From a virus, in the IMG/VR virus record IMGVR_UViG_3300019487_000054, positions 1-40,311 of that record: DNA of 40,311 nt. One strand, written 5' to 3'. The notes beneath the pieces were generated by a model. It was not told the DNA's origin, searched no databases, and saw only the letters and a program-made list of their open reading frames with translations. Of the stretch, positions 6,722 through 36,460 are shown piece by piece. Position 1 is the stretch's first letter; the number at the start of each line of letters is the position of its first letter. The translations under genes were made by a program, and so were the position numbers.

Positions 6722-7696
6722 TTGAGTTTTGCCTTTTTGTCGAGTAGTATTGGGCAAATGCTCGTACAGTCCCAAATTGTAGCTCTTCTCAACGAGTTGC
6801 TCGGTCAGACAGCACGGCTTCGTAAAGGAGGCAATCAGGCTGTTTATTTCTGCCCCTGTTGCCATCACTACAAGCGAAAATTGGAAATCAATTTGGAGAC
6901 GGGTCAGTGGCATTGTTGGACGTGTAACATCAAGGGTTCGTTCTTAGGTTCTTTCCTCAAAAAAGTCAAAGCCTCAAGTTCTTACAGAGAAAGAATGGCA
7001 GAACTGACGGGCGATTTGCGAATTGCTATTCGCAAAAAAGGAAAGGAAGACGAACAGGCGTTAATGCTGCCGGACGAGTTTCATCCGTTGGCGAAACCCG
7101 TTGCCTCAATTGAATACCGAAATGCATTGAGCTACTTGAAACGTCGTGGGGTTCTTCGTGAAGACATCATCCGATACAACATTGGATATGCAGAAAGTGG
7201 AGACTATGCATTTTATGTCATCATTCCATCCTACGATGCCGAGGGAAATCTGAATTTTTTCATGGGTAGGCGTTATTATGAAAGCGAGGGAACAATCCCA
7301 CACAAGAAGCCGCAAGTGCCCATGAATCTGGTTGGCTTTGAAAGCTTTGTCAATTACAGCGAACCACTGAATTTCTGTGAAGGAGCATTTGATGCGATGG
7401 CAATCAGAACCAATGCCATTCCGCTCTTTGGAAAATATCCTTCCAAGAAGCTTCGTGAGCGAATGGTAATACACGATGTCAAACGTGTCAACATGGTGTT
7501 GGACGATGATGCACTTAATGATGCAGTAAAAAATTACGAACTGCTAGTTAAAGATGTGCCCGGAATTTCGGTCTTCATTGTTAAGCTCAATGGCAAAGAC
7601 CCTTCCAAACTTGGATTTTTGAAGACGCACAAATTGATTCGGGAAGCAGAAGAATTCACAGAGTCCGATTTGTTAGCGTACAAACTGAACATATGA
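6722..7696 (+). CDS. DNA primase (gp61/DnaG-type)
   Basis: The 324-residue protein has an N-terminal zinc finger (C44, C47, C65, C68; CPCC and CWTC) of the CHC2 primase type. A Toprim-like core follows with FCEGAFDAMAI (glutamate plus DA) and an acidic VLDDDA cluster. These motifs synthesise RNA primers for lagging-strand replication. The length is close to T4 gp61. The first start is TTG 6722; an in-frame ATG at 6758 (residue 13) is a credible alternative and still precedes the zinc finger. The stop overlaps the following nuclease gene by ATGA, so primase and recombination nuclease are coupled. No helicase gene lies in the window. Confidence 0.88.
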   Translation: MSFAFLSSSIGQMLVQSQIVALLNELLGQTARLRKGGNQAVYFCPCCHHYKRKLEINLETGQWHCWTCNIKGSFLGSFLKKVKASSSYRERMAELTGDLRIAIRKKGKEDEQALMLPDEFHPLAKPVASIEYRNALSYLKRRGVLREDIIRYNIGYAESGDYAFYVIIPSYDAEGNLNFFMGRRYYESEGTIPHKKPQVPMNLVGFESFVNYSEPLNFCEGAFDAMAIRTNAIPLFGKYPSKKLRERMVIHDVKRVNMVLDDDALNDAVKNYELLVKDVPGISVFIVKLNGKDPSKLGFLKTHKLIREAEEFTESDLLAYKLNI

Positions 7697-10600
7697 TAAC
7701 TATCCTAAAGACGGAAAACAAGAAGTTCACCCATATTCTGCACGTTGCAGACATCCACATCAGGTTGAACAAGCGACACGACGAATATCGCAACGTCTTC
7801 AAAACTCTCTACGAAGAAGTCAGAAACAGTCCACCAGATACAGTTGTTGCTTTGCTGGGCGACGTTTTTCATAGCAAGTCCGACCTTAGCCCCGAATGCG
7901 TTCAAATGGCAACCGATTTGTTCAAGAATCTTGCCGACATTCGTCCTGTCATTTTGATTGCGGGAAATCACGACGCCACACTTTCCAACAAGAGTCGCTT
8001 GGACAGTTTGACTCCAATCGTAGATGCATTAAGTCATCCCAACTTACACTATTTGAAGAACACGGGGTTGTATGGATATGGAAACATTTTGTGGAACAAC
8101 ATGGGTGTGTTTGATCAGCCAGAAAACTATATCCGTGGTCAAGACATTCCAGATTTGTATCGCAATCAGTACGACCACATAATCGCACTATTCCACGGGG
8201 CAGTTGATAAAGCTGCTTTGGAGAGCGGTTATGCCATCAGCAATCCCGCCATCATGGTTCCAATGTTTGATTGGCACGATATTGCCTTGCTTGGAGACAT
8301 TCACAAAAAGCAAGACATGCAAGACTATGATCCCGAAAATCATAAGCCATGTGTGCATTATGTGGGAAGTATGGTTCAACAAAACCACGGCGAAGACCTT
8401 CATGGACATGGTTATTCAATGTGGGATTTGCCGACTCGTTCCTACGAATTCCACGAACTCAAAAATGAAGTTGGGTACTTCACAGTTGATATTCATAAGG
8501 GGCAGGTCACTACAGATTTGACTGAGCTTCCCGCTCAAGTTCATCTTCGTCTCCGATGCTATGATACAATTGCTTCGGAAGTCAAGGCGGTTGTAGCCAA
8601 GCTCAAAGAACGCTGTCAGATTGTTGAAACGGCGTATGTCCGCATGGACCAAGAAGCCGACAAAAAGGATGTTATTCCACTTTGTACCGACGTTGTATTG
8701 ACCGATTTGACCAATGTTGAATATCAAAACGAACTGATCAAAGAGTTCTTGGAGAAAAAGCTTCAAATCACAAATCCACAAAAAGCGGATGATATTCTTA
8801 ACATCAATCGTGCAACAAATCTCCTTATCAAACGAGACGAGTTTGCTCGCAATTTGAAGTGGAAGCCCATCAAATTTGAATGGGATAATATGTTCACTTA
8901 TGGGGAAGGAAACTCAATTGACTTCACCCAAATGGATGGCGTCTATGGAATCTTTGGTCCAAACTGTGCTGGAAAATCAAGCATTCTTTCATCTCTGATT
9001 TTCTGCTTGTATGACAAGTTTGACCGTGGGTTTAAGGGTCTTCATGTACTCAACGTTCAAAAGTCTTCCTTCCGCTGCAAACTGGAATTTGAGATTTCTG
9101 GTGTCCGATATTTCATTGAGAGAAAAGGCTCAACTACTCGTTCTGGAAACGTCAAGGTTGACGTGAAGTTCTGGAAAGTAGTGAATGGTGTGGAAGAAGA
9201 ATTACACGGCACGGCTCGGCGTGATACCAACGAAGTCATTCGTGATTATATTGGAACATACGAAGATTTCGTACTCACCGCTGCCTCTTTCCAGACCGCA
9301 AAGAACAACACGTCGTTCATTGACATGGGCAATAGCGAACGGAAAGACTTGCTTGTTCAATTCATTGGATTGAATGTGTTTGACCGTCTTGCCGAATCGG
9401 GCAGTGAACGCAACAAAGAACTCAATACGTTGCTAAAGGTTCATAAGGATAAGAACTATCCATTTGAAAAGCAACAGAATGAGAATGCGTTGGCACACGC
9501 CGACACACTTCTCAATCAAGCCAACAAAGACTTGGATTCGTTGAAGAAACAAATCTCCGATGTCAATGAACAAATTGTTATTGAGACAGGAAACTTGATT
9601 AAGCTGGACGATGAAGTTCCAACCAACATTCCCCAACTTAACGACCGAAAAATTGCAGCGGAGACTTCCGTTCGACAAAAACGTGCTGCTTTGGAAGGAT
9701 TTCGCACGGCGGTTGCTGAGAAAGAAGGCTCCATCACAGACATCAATCAGAAGATTCAAGACATTGAATCGTCCAATCTTGTTGAGAGTCACAAGACCTA
9801 CAAGACTTTATCAGACAAAATCAATGAAGTGAAGCAACGGGTCGATCTCAAGAAGGTGGAGATCAAGGGTAAGTTGGAAAAAGCCGACCGTTTGAGTGTC
9901 CACGAGTACGACCCCAATTGCCGCTACTGCACGAACAATTCCTTTGTGAAGGATGCAACTCGTGCAAAACAAGAATTGATTCAAGACAAAAAAGATACGG
10001 ACCACATGGTCTCTGCGTTGGAAAATCTTCGCACTGAGTTTGCCAAGTATGAGTGGGTCGAAAAGGCATATGAAACCTACACCAAGCTTTTGAATGAGAG
10101 AAGTAAGGTGAAGGATGAATATGGAACCCTGTCCCGAAACATCATTGTTGGAACCAATGAGCTTGAAAAATTGGAAGTGGCACTGAAGACTGTTACGGGT
10201 CAGATTGAACTTTACCATCGCAACGAAGTCGCCGTGGAAAGTAACTCAAAGGTTCATGCCAAGATTTCTTCTTACAAGACGACCATTACTCGGTTGGATT
10301 TGGACTTACAAAAACAGAACCGATTGATGATGGACATTTCCGGCAAGCGTGAAATCTTCCGCAACAACATTGAGAAGCTGTGCAAGACTATGGAAGAGCT
10401 TAAAGCTTTGGAATATGAAGCTGATTCGTATCAGTTGTACCTTGCCTCGGTAGGACGTGATGGCATCCCGTACCAAGTCATCTGCAATACCGTTCCGGCA
10501 ATTGAAAAGGAAGTGAATTCTATTCTCTGCCAAGTGGTTGACTACACAATCCAGCTTGAGACGGATGGGAAGAACGTAGTTCCGTACGTTGTCTATGACC

Positions 10601-10899
10601 ACGGACGCTGGCCAATTGAGCTTACGTCTGGATTTGAGAGATTTGTTGCCTCGGTTGCAATCCGTGTAGCCCTGACAAACATATCAAATCTCCCCAAAAC
10701 CACATTCTTGGCGATTGATGAAGGCTTTGGAACATTGGATGCCGATAACATGGCTGCGATGTACACTTTGTTCTCATTCCTGAAGAGCAATTTTGACTTT
10801 ATCCTTGTCGTGAGTCATTTGGACGCCCTGAAAGACGCCGTTGACAAGCAGATTGAGTTAAAGAAAGAGGGCAGCTTCTCCAAAGTAACATTTGAATGA
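7693..10899 (+). CDS. Fused SbcD/SbcC-type recombination nuclease-ATPase (gp47-gp46 fusion)
   Basis: The 1068-residue chain joins both halves of the Mre11/Rad50 system. The N-terminal calcineurin-like phosphoesterase shows D20-x-H22, D57 (LLGDVFH) and N92-H93-D94. From about residue 405 an ABC ATPase half begins with Walker A (GPNCAGKSS, 422-430). A long coiled coil carries a zinc hook (CRYC, 743-746). The C-terminal ATPase half has a signature near 978 (LTSGFERF) and Walker B D1009/E1010 (AIDEGFGTLD). In T4 these are separate genes 47 and 46, needed for end resection and recombination-dependent replication. Reading is continuous with no internal stop. It overlaps primase upstream and an HNH gene downstream, each by ATGA. 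Confidence 0.9.
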   Translation: MITILKTENKKFTHILHVADIHIRLNKRHDEYRNVFKTLYEEVRNSPPDTVVALLGDVFHSKSDLSPECVQMATDLFKNLADIRPVILIAGNHDATLSNKSRLDSLTPIVDALSHPNLHYLKNTGLYGYGNILWNNMGVFDQPENYIRGQDIPDLYRNQYDHIIALFHGAVDKAALESGYAISNPAIMVPMFDWHDIALLGDIHKKQDMQDYDPENHKPCVHYVGSMVQQNHGEDLHGHGYSMWDLPTRSYEFHELKNEVGYFTVDIHKGQVTTDLTELPAQVHLRLRCYDTIASEVKAVVAKLKERCQIVETAYVRMDQEADKKDVIPLCTDVVLTDLTNVEYQNELIKEFLEKKLQITNPQKADDILNINRATNLLIKRDEFARNLKWKPIKFEWDNMFTYGEGNSIDFTQMDGVYGIFGPNCAGKSSILSSLIFCLYDKFDRGFKGLHVLNVQKSSFRCKLEFEISGVRYFIERKGSTTRSGNVKVDVKFWKVVNGVEEELHGTARRDTNEVIRDYIGTYEDFVLTAASFQTAKNNTSFIDMGNSERKDLLVQFIGLNVFDRLAESGSERNKELNTLLKVHKDKNYPFEKQQNENALAHADTLLNQANKDLDSLKKQISDVNEQIVIETGNLIKLDDEVPTNIPQLNDRKIAAETSVRQKRAALEGFRTAVAEKEGSITDINQKIQDIESSNLVESHKTYKTLSDKINEVKQRVDLKKVEIKGKLEKADRLSVHEYDPNCRYCTNNSFVKDATRAKQELIQDKKDTDHMVSALENLRTEFAKYEWVEKAYETYTKLLNERSKVKDEYGTLSRNIIVGTNELEKLEVALKTVTGQIELYHRNEVAVESNSKVHAKISSYKTTITRLDLDLQKQNRLMMDISGKREIFRNNIEKLCKTMEELKALEYEADSYQLYLASVGRDGIPYQVICNTVPAIEKEVNSILCQVVDYTIQLETDGKNVVPYVVYDHGRWPIELTSGFERFVASVAIRVALTNISNLPKTTFLAIDEGFGTLDADNMAAMYTLFSFLKSNFDFILVVSHLDALKDAVDKQIELKKEGSFSKVTFE

Positions 10900-32513: not shown

Positions 32514-32546
32514 ATCTAAAATAACTTGATATTCCCACCAATATCT

Positions 32547-32556
32547 GATATTTATG
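32547..32556 (+). promoter_or_regulatory. Late-type box (variant)
   Basis: The box reads GATATTTATG, with its core starting 13 bases before ATG 32562 and 10 before ATG 32559. It would give the mobile endonuclease its own, nearly leaderless transcript beyond the capsid terminator. Confidence 0.45.
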
Positions 32557-32561
32557 GTATG

Positions 32562-33320
32562 ATGAAAAGTGGAATATACAAGATAACAAATAATGTGACT
32601 GGTAAGTTTTACATTGGTAGTGCCAAGGATATTGATTGGCGTTGGATTATCCATCGGCGGGATTTGAGAGCCAATAGACATTGTAACCCAAAACTACAGC
32701 ACTCTTGGAACTTCTATGGAGAAGACAAGTTTTCCTTCATTATTCTTGAAGAAGTCGAACCAATCCAAGAGAAGTTATTTGAACGTGAGCAGTATTATTT
32801 GGATACCTTCAAACCGTATATTCGTGGGTTAGGATACAACATTAGCCCAAAAGCAGATGGTGGTGATAACATAACATATCATCCTGATAGAGATGCATTC
32901 ATTGAAAAAATGAGTGCGATTTGTTCCGGTGAGAATAATCCTATGTTCGGAAGAACCCATAGTGATGATACGATTAAAAAACAAAAAGAAAAAGCAAACG
33001 GCAGATTTACGCTTGAGTGGTTTATTGAGAAGTATGGATTAGAACAAGGTCAACAAAAATATGATGCTCGCAGATTGATGTTGGCTAATAGGAAAATGAA
33101 ACAGAACAATGAACCGTGGAATAAAGGAAAAGACACCGGCATTAGATGGAAACATAAAGATGGCTGGTTAGAAAAAAGAAAACAAACTGCCGAGTATTTT
33201 ATCAATCATTTTAATGAATTCAGAGCATTGGTTCTTTCAGGAAATCATAGTCAACGAGAACTATGTAAAATTTTGGGTGTAGGAAGGGAATGTTTAAGAA
33301 AAAATATAAAAAGAATTTGA
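32562..33320 (+). CDS. GIY-YIG homing endonuclease with NUMOD-type DNA-binding modules
   Basis: The 252-residue protein starts with the GIY-YIG domain (SGIYKITNNVTGKFYIGSA, residues 3-21), with active-site candidates in the following WRWIIHRRDL helix. NUMOD3-type motifs follow (GENNPMFGRTHSDD near residue 126, and EPWNKGKDTG), and a C-terminal helix-turn-helix (HSQRELCKILGVGRECLRKN). These modules bind DNA in phage and intron homing enzymes. The next-base alternative start ATG 32559 would add one Met. The gene is AT-rich compared with the capsid gene, sits immediately after its terminator, and is a typical free-standing mobile endonuclease beside a conserved structural gene. Confidence 0.88.
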   Translation: MKSGIYKITNNVTGKFYIGSAKDIDWRWIIHRRDLRANRHCNPKLQHSWNFYGEDKFSFIILEEVEPIQEKLFEREQYYLDTFKPYIRGLGYNISPKADGGDNITYHPDRDAFIEKMSAICSGENNPMFGRTHSDDTIKKQKEKANGRFTLEWFIEKYGLEQGQQKYDARRLMLANRKMKQNNEPWNKGKDTGIRWKHKDGWLEKRKQTAEYFINHFNEFRALVLSGNHSQRELCKILGVGRECLRKNIKRI

Positions 33321-34689: not shown

Positions 34690-34718
34690 TTGACAAATAC
34701 TTATTCTTGTCATACATT
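34690..34718 (+). promoter_or_regulatory. Sigma70-like promoter for release-factor gene
   Basis: A perfect TTGACA -35 and a TACATT -10 are separated by 17 bases. The -10 ends 9 bases before ATG 34728, giving a leader of about 3 bases, the same geometry as the promoter at 24981. Confidence 0.75.
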
Positions 34719-34727
34719 TGACGACTT

Positions 34728-35379
34728 ATGATCGTAGAAATCAGAGCAGCAGAAGGTGGGGCCGACGCCAAAGACTTGGTGTTGGTTCAAGTAGATATTT
34801 ACACTCGCTTGGCAAAGCGGGGGTTGCTTTGACCTCGAAATTGTTGACCTAAGACCGGGGTTGGCAGTTCTTCAAGTAGGCGGTCATAAAGCTTCCGAAA
34901 TCTTCCAACACGAATCCGGCGGACACCGATGGCAGCACGCTCCTACAGGCAAAGTCCATACTAGCACCATTACGGTCGCTGTATTGGAAGAGCCTACTCA
35001 ACAGGAGCTTGTTATTCATCAAAAAGACCTCCATATAGCCACATGTCGGGGTGCGGGCAACGGTGGACAACACCGCAACAAAACCGATTCCGCTGTGATT
35101 GTTACGCATATACCTACCAAAACGGTAGTTAGGTGTGAAAACGAGCGTTCTCAGCATCAAAACAAGGAATTGGCTATAAAAACCCTCCGAGCACGCCTTT
35201 GGCAATCCATTCAAGAAAAGACTGCCTTGGCAGTATCACAGATTAGAAACAATCAAATAGGGTCAGGACAACGGGGAGACAAGCGGAGGACAATTCAGGC
35301 TCAGAATAATGTCGTAAAAGACCATCTGACGGGTCGGAAGTGGAGATATGAGGATTACATCAAAGGTAGATGGGATTAA
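34728..35379 (+). CDS. Domain-1-less class I release factor expressed by predicted +1 frameshift
   Basis: Two reading frames form one release factor: 34728-34829 (34 codons, ending in an in-frame TGA) and 34831-35379 (+1 frame). Skipping T34830 yields 216 residues. The first part, VEIRAAEGGADAKDL, corresponds to the start of RF domain 2 and the +1 part continues it without a gap (HESGGHRWQ, HTSTITVAV). Then come the GGQ loop (GAGNGGQHRNKTDSAV, Q114), ERSQHQNKELA and GSGQRGDKRRT, signatures of peptidyl-tRNA-hydrolysing release factors. Domain 1 (about 100 residues) is absent: an in-frame TGA lies 9 bases upstream of the ATG. The stop-codon recognition segment is short (APTGKVHTS). It has its own sigma70-like promoter, so it may be an early gene. 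Confidence 0.85.
34819..34833 (+). other. Predicted programmed +1 frameshift site (prfB-like)
   Basis: GGGGG (34819-34823), a three-base spacer TTG, then slip codon CTT and TGA C. This has the same slip codon, stop and following base, and the same spacing from the G run, as the Escherichia coli prfB site (AGGGGG TAT CTT TGA C). In prfB, slow UGA termination lets peptidyl-tRNA slip +1 with help from the Shine-Dalgarno-like pairing. Frameshifting here is inferred. Confidence 0.88.
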
Positions 35380-35719: not shown

Positions 35720-36460
35720 ATGATTTCATTTTCAAAATTGATGCGGAAGGTTTTAACTGAACGAATGTCTTTCCGTGACTTGTTTCGTGTCAGTGAACCC
35801 GGACGCATAGACCGTGCTCGTGATGTCAATGCAAAGTCATTGAAAGTTACCAGCATGGACGGAAATGAAGCATGGACGTTTTCATACAAAAGTAATCCAA
35901 GCACCACTGGCAATCGTTGGCAGGGTTACGTCCGGTTTTTGAAAGAAGACGTAAGCCACAAAGATCGTGCCGACCAATTGGATTGTATGGTTGACTGCAC
36001 TTGTCCTGACTATCGTTTTCGATGGGCATATAACAATGCCAAACAAGATGCCGGTGCTCTTGGACCGGGAGCGTGGAATGACAATAACGGAACCGCTCCT
36101 CGTCCTCGTGAACAAGGCGGTGTTGGAGATCAAGGTCCGGGAATGTGCAAGCACTTAATCGCCTTGGGAGAATTTCTAAAGACAAACATTGAGCCAGAAG
36201 CTCCGAGTCCAGAAGAACCCAAGGCTCCTGAACCAACGATCAAGCCTACTCCCACAGCAAAGAAAGAACCCGTGCCCGTAAAGGCAACTGTTCAAGCTCC
36301 GGAACCAGAAGATACTTATAGCGACAGTCGTGCCGGTGACAATGACGATACTTATTCCGATTCACGAGGCGGACTCGAAGAAGGACACGGACAACTGACG
36401 CAGAAGCTCAACAACCTCGTAAAGACCAAGCCTCAATTTGACGTGTTCTATGAAGATTGA
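35720..36460 (+). CDS. SWIM-type zinc-finger protein
   Basis: The 246-residue protein has a CxC...CxH zinc pattern: VDCTCPDYRFRW (C93, C95) and GMCKHLIALGEFL (C143, H145). This is a SWIM domain with an insertion of about 47 residues (rich in Gly, Asn and Pro), longer than typical. The N-terminus is a short amphipathic helix (SKLMRKVLTERM). Residues about 155-200 form a Pro/Glu/Lys-rich linker, followed by a tandem acidic repeat DTYSDSR (two copies near residues 196 and 209). SWIM domains bind DNA or proteins. The last 11 bases overlap the next gene. It is possibly virion-internal, inferred from its N-terminus. Confidence 0.7.
   Translation: MISFSKLMRKVLTERMSFRDLFRVSEPGRIDRARDVNAKSLKVTSMDGNEAWTFSYKSNPSTTGNRWQGYVRFLKEDVSHKDRADQLDCMVDCTCPDYRFRWAYNNAKQDAGALGPGAWNDNNGTAPRPREQGGVGDQGPGMCKHLIALGEFLKTNIEPEAPSPEEPKAPEPTIKPTPTAKKEPVPVKATVQAPEPEDTYSDSRAGDNDDTYSDSRGGLEEGHGQLTQKLNNLVKTKPQFDVFYED

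What the first reader, a model, noticed from the sequence alone, without database searches (positions are those of the whole stretch)
34728..35379. Phage release-factor gene with a prfB-type +1 frameshift site in a new location
Seen: the first 34 codons end in CTT TGA C, with GGGGG three bases before CTT, the same slip codon, stop context and spacing as Escherichia coli prfB. Skipping one base joins two segments into one release factor with GGQ. Known: in bacterial prfB the site lies in domain 1 and autoregulates RF2. Here domain 1 is absent and the site falls inside domain 2, so it was either moved or arose independently. Inferred: the phage makes its factor mainly when UGA termination is slow, for example if host RF2 becomes limiting as UGA-ending genes are expressed.
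Basis: partly seen in the sequence, partly recalled or inferred. Interest (0 to 1): 0.93.

Follow-up and report, generated by a model that had tools for sequence, protein, structure and literature searches.

The report
Phage mini release factors behind stops
Many phages carry a shortened version of the protein that ends translation, and its gene almost always contains an early stop signal that ribosomes must slip past or read through, so the phage probably makes the factor mainly when stop signals are being read poorly.

Summary
Window 34728-35379 encodes a 216-aa class-I release factor without domain 1, split by a prfB-type +1 site (GGGGG-TTG-CTT-TGA-C; E. coli prfB is AGGGGG-TAT-CTT-TGA-C). 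It is not an error. The break recurs at the same residue in relatives at 49-62% identity. In 76 distinct +1 loci the slip codon is CTT 76/76 times, against 13% of leucine codons elsewhere in those genes. The gate stop is TGA (60), TAG (15) or TAA (1).

The proteins form one clade beside RF1, not RF2 or RFH/PrfH. Of 189 distinct domain-1-less members sampled, 182 carry an early stop: 85 need a +1 shift and 97 in-frame readthrough of one or two stops. In 74 of these the TGA lies at RF1's conserved Trp; TGA is a working stop in those phages. Readthrough-gated RF genes were stated to be unknown in bacteria (Atkins 2016); the nearest analogue is Mimivirus eRF1.

Best explanation: expression is gated by slow termination, as in prfB, giving a backup termination factor for phage translation. 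Several large-phage copies sit in tRNA arrays. Which stops it reads, and so whether this is self-feedback or a sensor of host RF2/RF1, is not shown.

The parts
34690..34718 (+). Promoter-like TTGACA-17-TACATT placed so that the mRNA would be leaderless or nearly so (ATG 10 nt after the -10 hexamer)
   Evidence: 1 found; shuffles give 1.4, so not significant alone; the same layout upstream of L002, L003, L018 and L019 (read by eye)
34728..34832 (+). ORF1: first 34 codons (strand 1 and helix 1 of domain 2, with the stop-reading tip EIRAAEGGADAK) plus the in-frame TGA
34819..34823 (+). Shine-Dalgarno-like GGGGG, 3 nt before the slip codon
34827..34833 (+). Slip site and stop: CTT TGA C; T34830 is skipped in the +1 shift
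34831..35379 (+). ORF2 in the +1 frame: rest of domain 2, domain 3 with GGQ, domain 4 remnant; ends at TAA 35377-35379
34927..34962 (+). Codon-recognition loop RWQHAPTGKVHT; four residues shorter than the family's usual RVPPTEKRGRVHT
35062..35070 (+). GGQ catalytic motif (GGT GGA CAA), residues 112-114

Best explanation
The gene encodes a phage 'mini-RF': an RF1-derived class-I release factor that has lost domain 1. Its full-length synthesis requires ribosomes to get past an early stop codon. In the window this happens by a prfB-type +1 slip at CUU UGA C, helped by an upstream Shine-Dalgarno-like run; in relatives it happens at CUU UAG, or by in-frame readthrough of one or two UGA/UAG codons. 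SHOWN by comparison: both fragments are conserved as one protein, and the gate is maintained and has changed form repeatedly. INFERRED: when termination is fast, ribosomes stop and release a useless peptide of about 34 aa; when termination at the gate stop is slow (release factors limiting, titrated or disabled during infection), ribosomes slip or read through and make the factor, which then restores peptide release for phage translation. I think it most likely that the factor itself can act at the gate stop and so closes a negative-feedback loop as in prfB; that last step is the least certain (about 0.5).
For: Same break in relatives at 49-62% identity. CTT 76/76 and an SD-like run in 64/76. 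N-part dN/dS well below 1. Fold search gives ribosome-bound RF1 first, TM 0.89. Family is one clade next to RF1, SH-aLRT 96* and 94. 182 of 189 distinct domain-1-less proteins are gated, while all 22 RF1 controls with an N-terminal extension of domain-1 size are not. The gate type changes at least 9 times and TGA/TAG at least 12 times on the tree, so selection seems to keep 'a stop to be bypassed'. UAA, which both host RFs read, is nearly absent as a gate. tRNA-rich context and tmRNA nearby in several large phages fit a role in phage translation.
Against: No expression or biochemical data. Most loops look RF1-like (PPT, Gln kept), which in ordinary RF1 would not read UGA, the commonest gate. 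Loop type and gate stop show no link. Seven members are ungated, so the gate is not indispensable. The match between gate stop and genome stop use does not hold up when the tree is taken into account.
Confidence: 0.75

Rival explanations
1. Cross-sensor: the factor keeps RF1 specificity (UAA/UAG). A UGA gate senses host RF2 shortage and a UAG gate senses host RF1 shortage, without the factor acting on its own UGA gate.
For: RF1 ancestry; RF1-type Gln and PPT/PPN loop in most members; UGA is the main gate.
Against: UAG gates occur in the same family with the same loops, where an RF1-type factor would act on its own gate; the Glu of RF1's GGxE tip is Asp in nearly all members, so specificity may have changed.
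Confidence: 0.3
2. Ribosome-rescue factor, working like RFH/PrfH: it acts on ribosomes damaged or stalled by host defence, and the gate detects ribosomes that terminate badly.
For: Domain 1 is absent as in RFH (PMC1586002); a few members, the window included, have a shortened codon-reading loop; tmRNA next to the gene in L005 and L030; RNA-ligase-like ORFs near eight loci.
Against: Tree and bit scores put it with RF1, not RFH; the GG of the tip and the full loop are kept in most members; RtcB is absent from most records and never adjacent.
Confidence: 0.15
3. The phages reassign UGA or UAG to an amino acid, so the in-frame stops are ordinary sense codons.
For: Some large phages do this (PMC13037316); in-frame stops occur at several columns.
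Against: Cannot explain the +1 loci. In the TGA@34 group TGA ends 110 of 398 other long ORFs and the next stop follows after a median of 9 codons, as for TAA. No suppressor tRNA was seen in the loci scanned. The double-stop group has fewer data (17 of 102 ORFs end in TGA).
Confidence: 0.03
4. Assembly error, pseudogene, or independent use of the two ORFs (a 34-aa peptide, or internal initiation of the C part).
For: In the window alone a frame break could be an indel; the ORF2 frame has a TTG at 34861.
Against: The same site recurs in dozens of unrelated assemblies, including the complete Minicystis rosea chromosome (L096) and the 485-kb phage genome LR745208. ORF1 carries the conserved stop-reading tip EIRAAEGGxDAK under purifying selection.
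Confidence: 0.02

Closest known systems
Bacterial prfB (RF2) programmed +1 frameshift, E. coli CTT TGA C
   Same: Slip codon CTT, stop, SD-like run and 3-nt spacing are the same; early stop in a release-factor gene.
   Different: Here the protein is RF1-derived, without domain 1, and the site is inside domain 2. TAG gates are common, whereas none was seen in 8,164 genomes for prfB (PMC12421855). In-frame readthrough relatives exist.
Mimivirus/Megavirus eRF1 (R726/mg280), readthrough plus frameshift (PMC3521657)
   Same: Virus-encoded class-I release factor whose gene has early stops bypassed by readthrough and frameshift.
   Different: That factor is eukaryotic/archaeal-type in viruses of amoebae; this one is a bacterial RF1-type protein, and each gene uses either a shift or readthrough.
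RFH / PrfH (prfH)
   Same: Class-I factor of about 200 aa lacking domain 1, sporadic distribution (PMC1586002).
   Different: Different branch of the tree, no RtcB partner, GG kept at the tip (RFH has GP), and stop gates.
Release factors 1 and 2 reported in huge phages (PMC7162821)
   Same: Phage-encoded termination factors, some genomes with tmRNA and tRNA genes.
   Different: The paper's main text does not mention frameshifting; the gates are not described there.

Membership tests
prfB-type +1 programmed frameshift element | CTT TGA C with an SD-like run at prfB spacing and the coding sequence continuing in +1 | tested here: met
   conserved at the same residue
prfB-type +1 programmed frameshift element | Frameshifting is measured and depends on release-factor level | not testable with these tools
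   needs a reporter or mass spectrometry
Release factor 2 (prfB) | Groups with RF2; SPF-type loop | tested here: not met
   tree places the family next to RF1; loop HAPTGK here, PPT in most relatives; TIGR00020 133 bits, cut-off 370
Release factor 1 (prfA) | Shared ancestry: closest to RF1 in tree, profile and fold | tested here: met
Release factor 1 (prfA) | Full-length protein with domain 1, over the family cut-off | tested here: not met
   stop just upstream of the ATG; TIGR00019 175 bits, cut-off 423
Release factor 1 (prfA) | Reads UAA and UAG only | not testable with these tools
   needs an in vitro release assay
RFH / PrfH | Groups with RFH and passes TIGR03072 | tested here: not met
   82.9 bits, cut-off 166.65; apart from RFH in the tree (one RFH row only, on a long branch)
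RFH / PrfH | Adjacent RtcB gene | tested here: not met
Giant-virus recoded eRF1 (Mimivirus R726) | eRF1-type sequence with one readthrough and one frameshift in the same gene | tested here: not met
   bacterial RF1-type protein; each gene uses either a shift or readthrough

The most novel reading that the evidence does not exclude
A widespread phage (and sometimes bacterial) release-factor family has repeatedly evolved stop-codon gates of different forms. The factor acts at more than the RF1 set of stops, including its own gate, and so serves as a self-adjusting terminator that phages switch on when host termination fails: a bacterial-virus parallel to the giant-virus eRF1.
Probability: 0.4. 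Interest if true: 0.95.

Novelty: new variant of a known kind. Interest (0 to 1): 0.9.

Why it matters
Recoding control was known for RF2 but not for RF1, and Atkins et al. 2016 state that an early in-frame UGA read through in RF2 genes, or the UAG/RF1 counterpart, was unknown. Here one RF1-derived phage family shows +1 shifts at UGA, UAG and UAA and readthrough at one or two stops, with many changes between them. That suggests selection keeps 'a stop that must be bypassed' rather than any one site. It gives a natural series for testing how termination speed is sensed and which residues set RF specificity, and suggests that termination is a step phages control. Standard gene calling splits or truncates these genes, so they are likely undercounted.

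Tried and rejected
Sequencing error or pseudogene: rejected by conservation. RFH/RtcB operon: rejected. Stop reassignment: rejected for the TGA@34 group, weaker evidence for the smaller groups. Autoregulation judged from loop type: no link between loop and gate stop. Gate stop tracking genome stop use: significant without tree correction (p=1.6e-4), not with it, so not used. A conserved neighbour gene: none across the family; only local groups share RNA-ligase-like, NADAR-like and GIY-YIG-like ORFs (named by eye from motifs). A Myxococcota house-keeping gene: rejected; among the listed best matches in 237 genomes only Minicystis carries it, the others being open frames of RF1 size (weaker matches were not all listed). 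Paper searches found no report of frameshifting in phage RF genes; subscription papers and preprints were not searched.

Full report
1. Observation. Window 34728-35379 holds ATG + 33 codons ending CTT, then TGA C; GGGGG lies three bases before CTT. Dropping T34830 gives one 216-aa protein with PCRF and RF-1 domains and GGQ at 35062-35070. A stop just upstream of the ATG rules out a fused domain 1. The E. coli MG1655 prfB site, fetched for comparison, is AGGGGG TAT CTT TGA C. The window is a 40,311-bp IMG/VR viral contig with T4-like capsid (Gp23), portal and terminase genes. The gene stands alone between two opposite-strand genes and has a TTGACA-17-TACATT promoter-like sequence placed for a leaderless or nearly leaderless mRNA; relatives L002, L003, L018 and L019 show the same layout by eye.

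2. It is real recoding. The first relatives found, L002-L005 from IMG/VR and L006 from a 485-kb uncultured phage genome, have 49-62% protein identity and all break at the same codon with CTT TGA. A profile search added many more, including the complete chromosome of Minicystis rosea DSM 24000 (L096) and other Myxococcota and Deltaproteobacteria MAGs. Over 76 distinct +1 loci the codon before the stop is CTT in 76, while CTT makes up 13% of leucine codons elsewhere in the same genes. 64 have a 5-nt SD-like run within -18..-4, and the best anti-SD pairing starts at -11 in 53. The stop is TGA 60, TAG 15, TAA 1. The N fragment is under purifying selection.

3. The gate is broader than a frameshift. 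Some relatives showed no shift but an in-frame TGA. Two further scans used only C-terminal motifs, so the gate was not part of the search. Of 160 new loci, 90 have one in-frame stop, 16 have two, 49 have a +1 shift, 1 is uninterrupted, and in 4 the N part was not found. The two scans started from gated subgroups and kept only the best 80 matches each, so the proportions are not a census of nature. After removing identical proteins: +1 at column 35 (65 CTT-TGA, 13 CTT-TAG, 1 CTT-TAA), +1 at column 51 (6 CTT-TAG), in-frame TGA at column 34 (74) or 35 (2), two in-frame stops at 36+49 or 41+49 (15, two of them with TAG at 49), single stops at 45-49 (6, one TAG). Seven domain-1-less proteins are ungated, and 22 ordinary RF1-type proteins with an N-terminal extension the size of domain 1 or longer are all ungated.

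4. Not a different genetic code. In 83 TGA@34 loci, 110 of 398 other long ORFs end in TGA, and the next stop follows after a median of 9 codons, as after TAA (10). No suppressor tRNA was seen in the loci scanned. The TGA at column 34 stands where 10 of 11 RF1s have Trp; tRNA-Trp is the classical near-cognate reader of UGA (established knowledge; the Mimivirus paper, PMC3521657, also infers Trp), so readthrough could restore the ancestral residue. The second stop of the double-stop group is mostly followed by CTG or CTA, a known leaky type of context (established knowledge).

5. What the protein is. In a 114-row tree with the gate columns removed, the 94 domain-1-less rows form one clade (96*) next to RF1 (94), apart from RF2 and the one RFH row. 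NCBIfam gives prfA 175, prfB 133 and prfH 83 bits, all below the curated cut-offs. AlphaFold gives pLDDT 88.7 and pTM 0.73; the junction lies between helix 12-30 and strand 35-42. The best PDB matches are ribosome-bound RF1, TM 0.89; PrfH gives 0.64. Most members keep the RF1-type Gln and a PPT/PPN loop whatever the gate stop. The window and a few others have a loop four residues shorter.

6. Context. Many loci in large phages lie within tRNA arrays (for example 34 tRNAs plus tmRNA in L030; tmRNA near the gene also in L005). RtcB is not a partner. In Minicystis and a Sphingomonas MAG (L133) the neighbours tested are cellular-type genes (GDSL lipase, PA14; TonB receptor, methyltransferase), so cellular copies may exist outside prophages. 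Both look rare in their groups.

7. Mechanism. Shown by comparison: one protein in two segments, an obligatory stop bypass, conservation of the slip signal, and frequent change of gate form (at least 9 changes of type, at least 12 of TGA/TAG on the best tree). Inferred: the bypass rate reports how slowly the stop is read, so the factor appears when termination is limiting. UAA, which both host RFs read, is nearly absent as a gate, which fits a sensor that must depend on one factor. Undecided: whether the factor reads its own gate stop (feedback), only UAA/UAG (sensor of host RF2 or RF1), or damaged ribosomes (rescue).

8. Known background. The prfB survey (PMC12421855) found no TAG gate in 8,164 genomes and no programmed shift in prfA. 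Atkins et al. 2016 (PMC5009743) state that an early in-frame UGA with readthrough in RF2 genes, and the UAG/RF1 counterpart, are unknown, apart from the giant-virus case. That case is Mimivirus/Megavirus eRF1 with readthrough plus frameshift (PMC3521657). The huge-phage paper reports RF1 and RF2 genes without mentioning frameshifting in its main text (PMC7162821). I found no earlier description of this family's gates in the open-access library; subscription papers and preprints were not searched.

Noticed in passing
L021:3425-3502, L023:4366-4440, L025:3977-4054: tRNA-Leu-like genes, two with an 8-nt anticodon loop called 'taag' by ARAGORN and one called aag, in phages whose gated factor slips at CTT. 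They might influence decoding of CUU-U.
   Followed up: partly
window 34690-34728; L002, L003, L018, L019; L021-L023, L025, L029, L083, L136: Promoter-like sequences end just before the start codon, suggesting leaderless or nearly leaderless mRNAs for this gene in several phages (relatives read by eye).
   Followed up: partly
window 7693-10899: One ORF joins a calcineurin-like phosphoesterase domain and an AAA_23/SMC domain, like a fused SbcD-SbcC (T4 gp47-gp46) protein.
   Followed up: no
window 35910-35987: ARAGORN tRNA-Phe call inside ORF 35720-36460; Rfam gives no match, so probably false.
   Followed up: yes
window 32526-33320: GIY-YIG-like homing-endonuclease ORF directly after the capsid gene (judged by eye; a cluster of similar ORFs lies near other loci).
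   Followed up: no
L133:6001-6700, L096:6001-6658: Gated mini-RF genes in a Sphingomonas MAG and in the Minicystis rosea chromosome next to cellular-type genes rather than obvious prophage genes.
   Followed up: partly
G036 (Minicystis) C1:15127277-15129039: RtcB matches directly followed by an RF-like match, apparently an RFH-RtcB locus in the same genome as the gated mini-RF.
   Followed up: no
G036 (Minicystis) C1:293287-294321: The host prfB match contains one TAA, an unusual stop if it is the prfB frameshift site.
   Followed up: no
L226, L233, L241, L257, L259, L094: Six members have a CTT TAG +1 site at column 51, without a clear SD-like run, a second location for the shift in this family.
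   Followed up: partly
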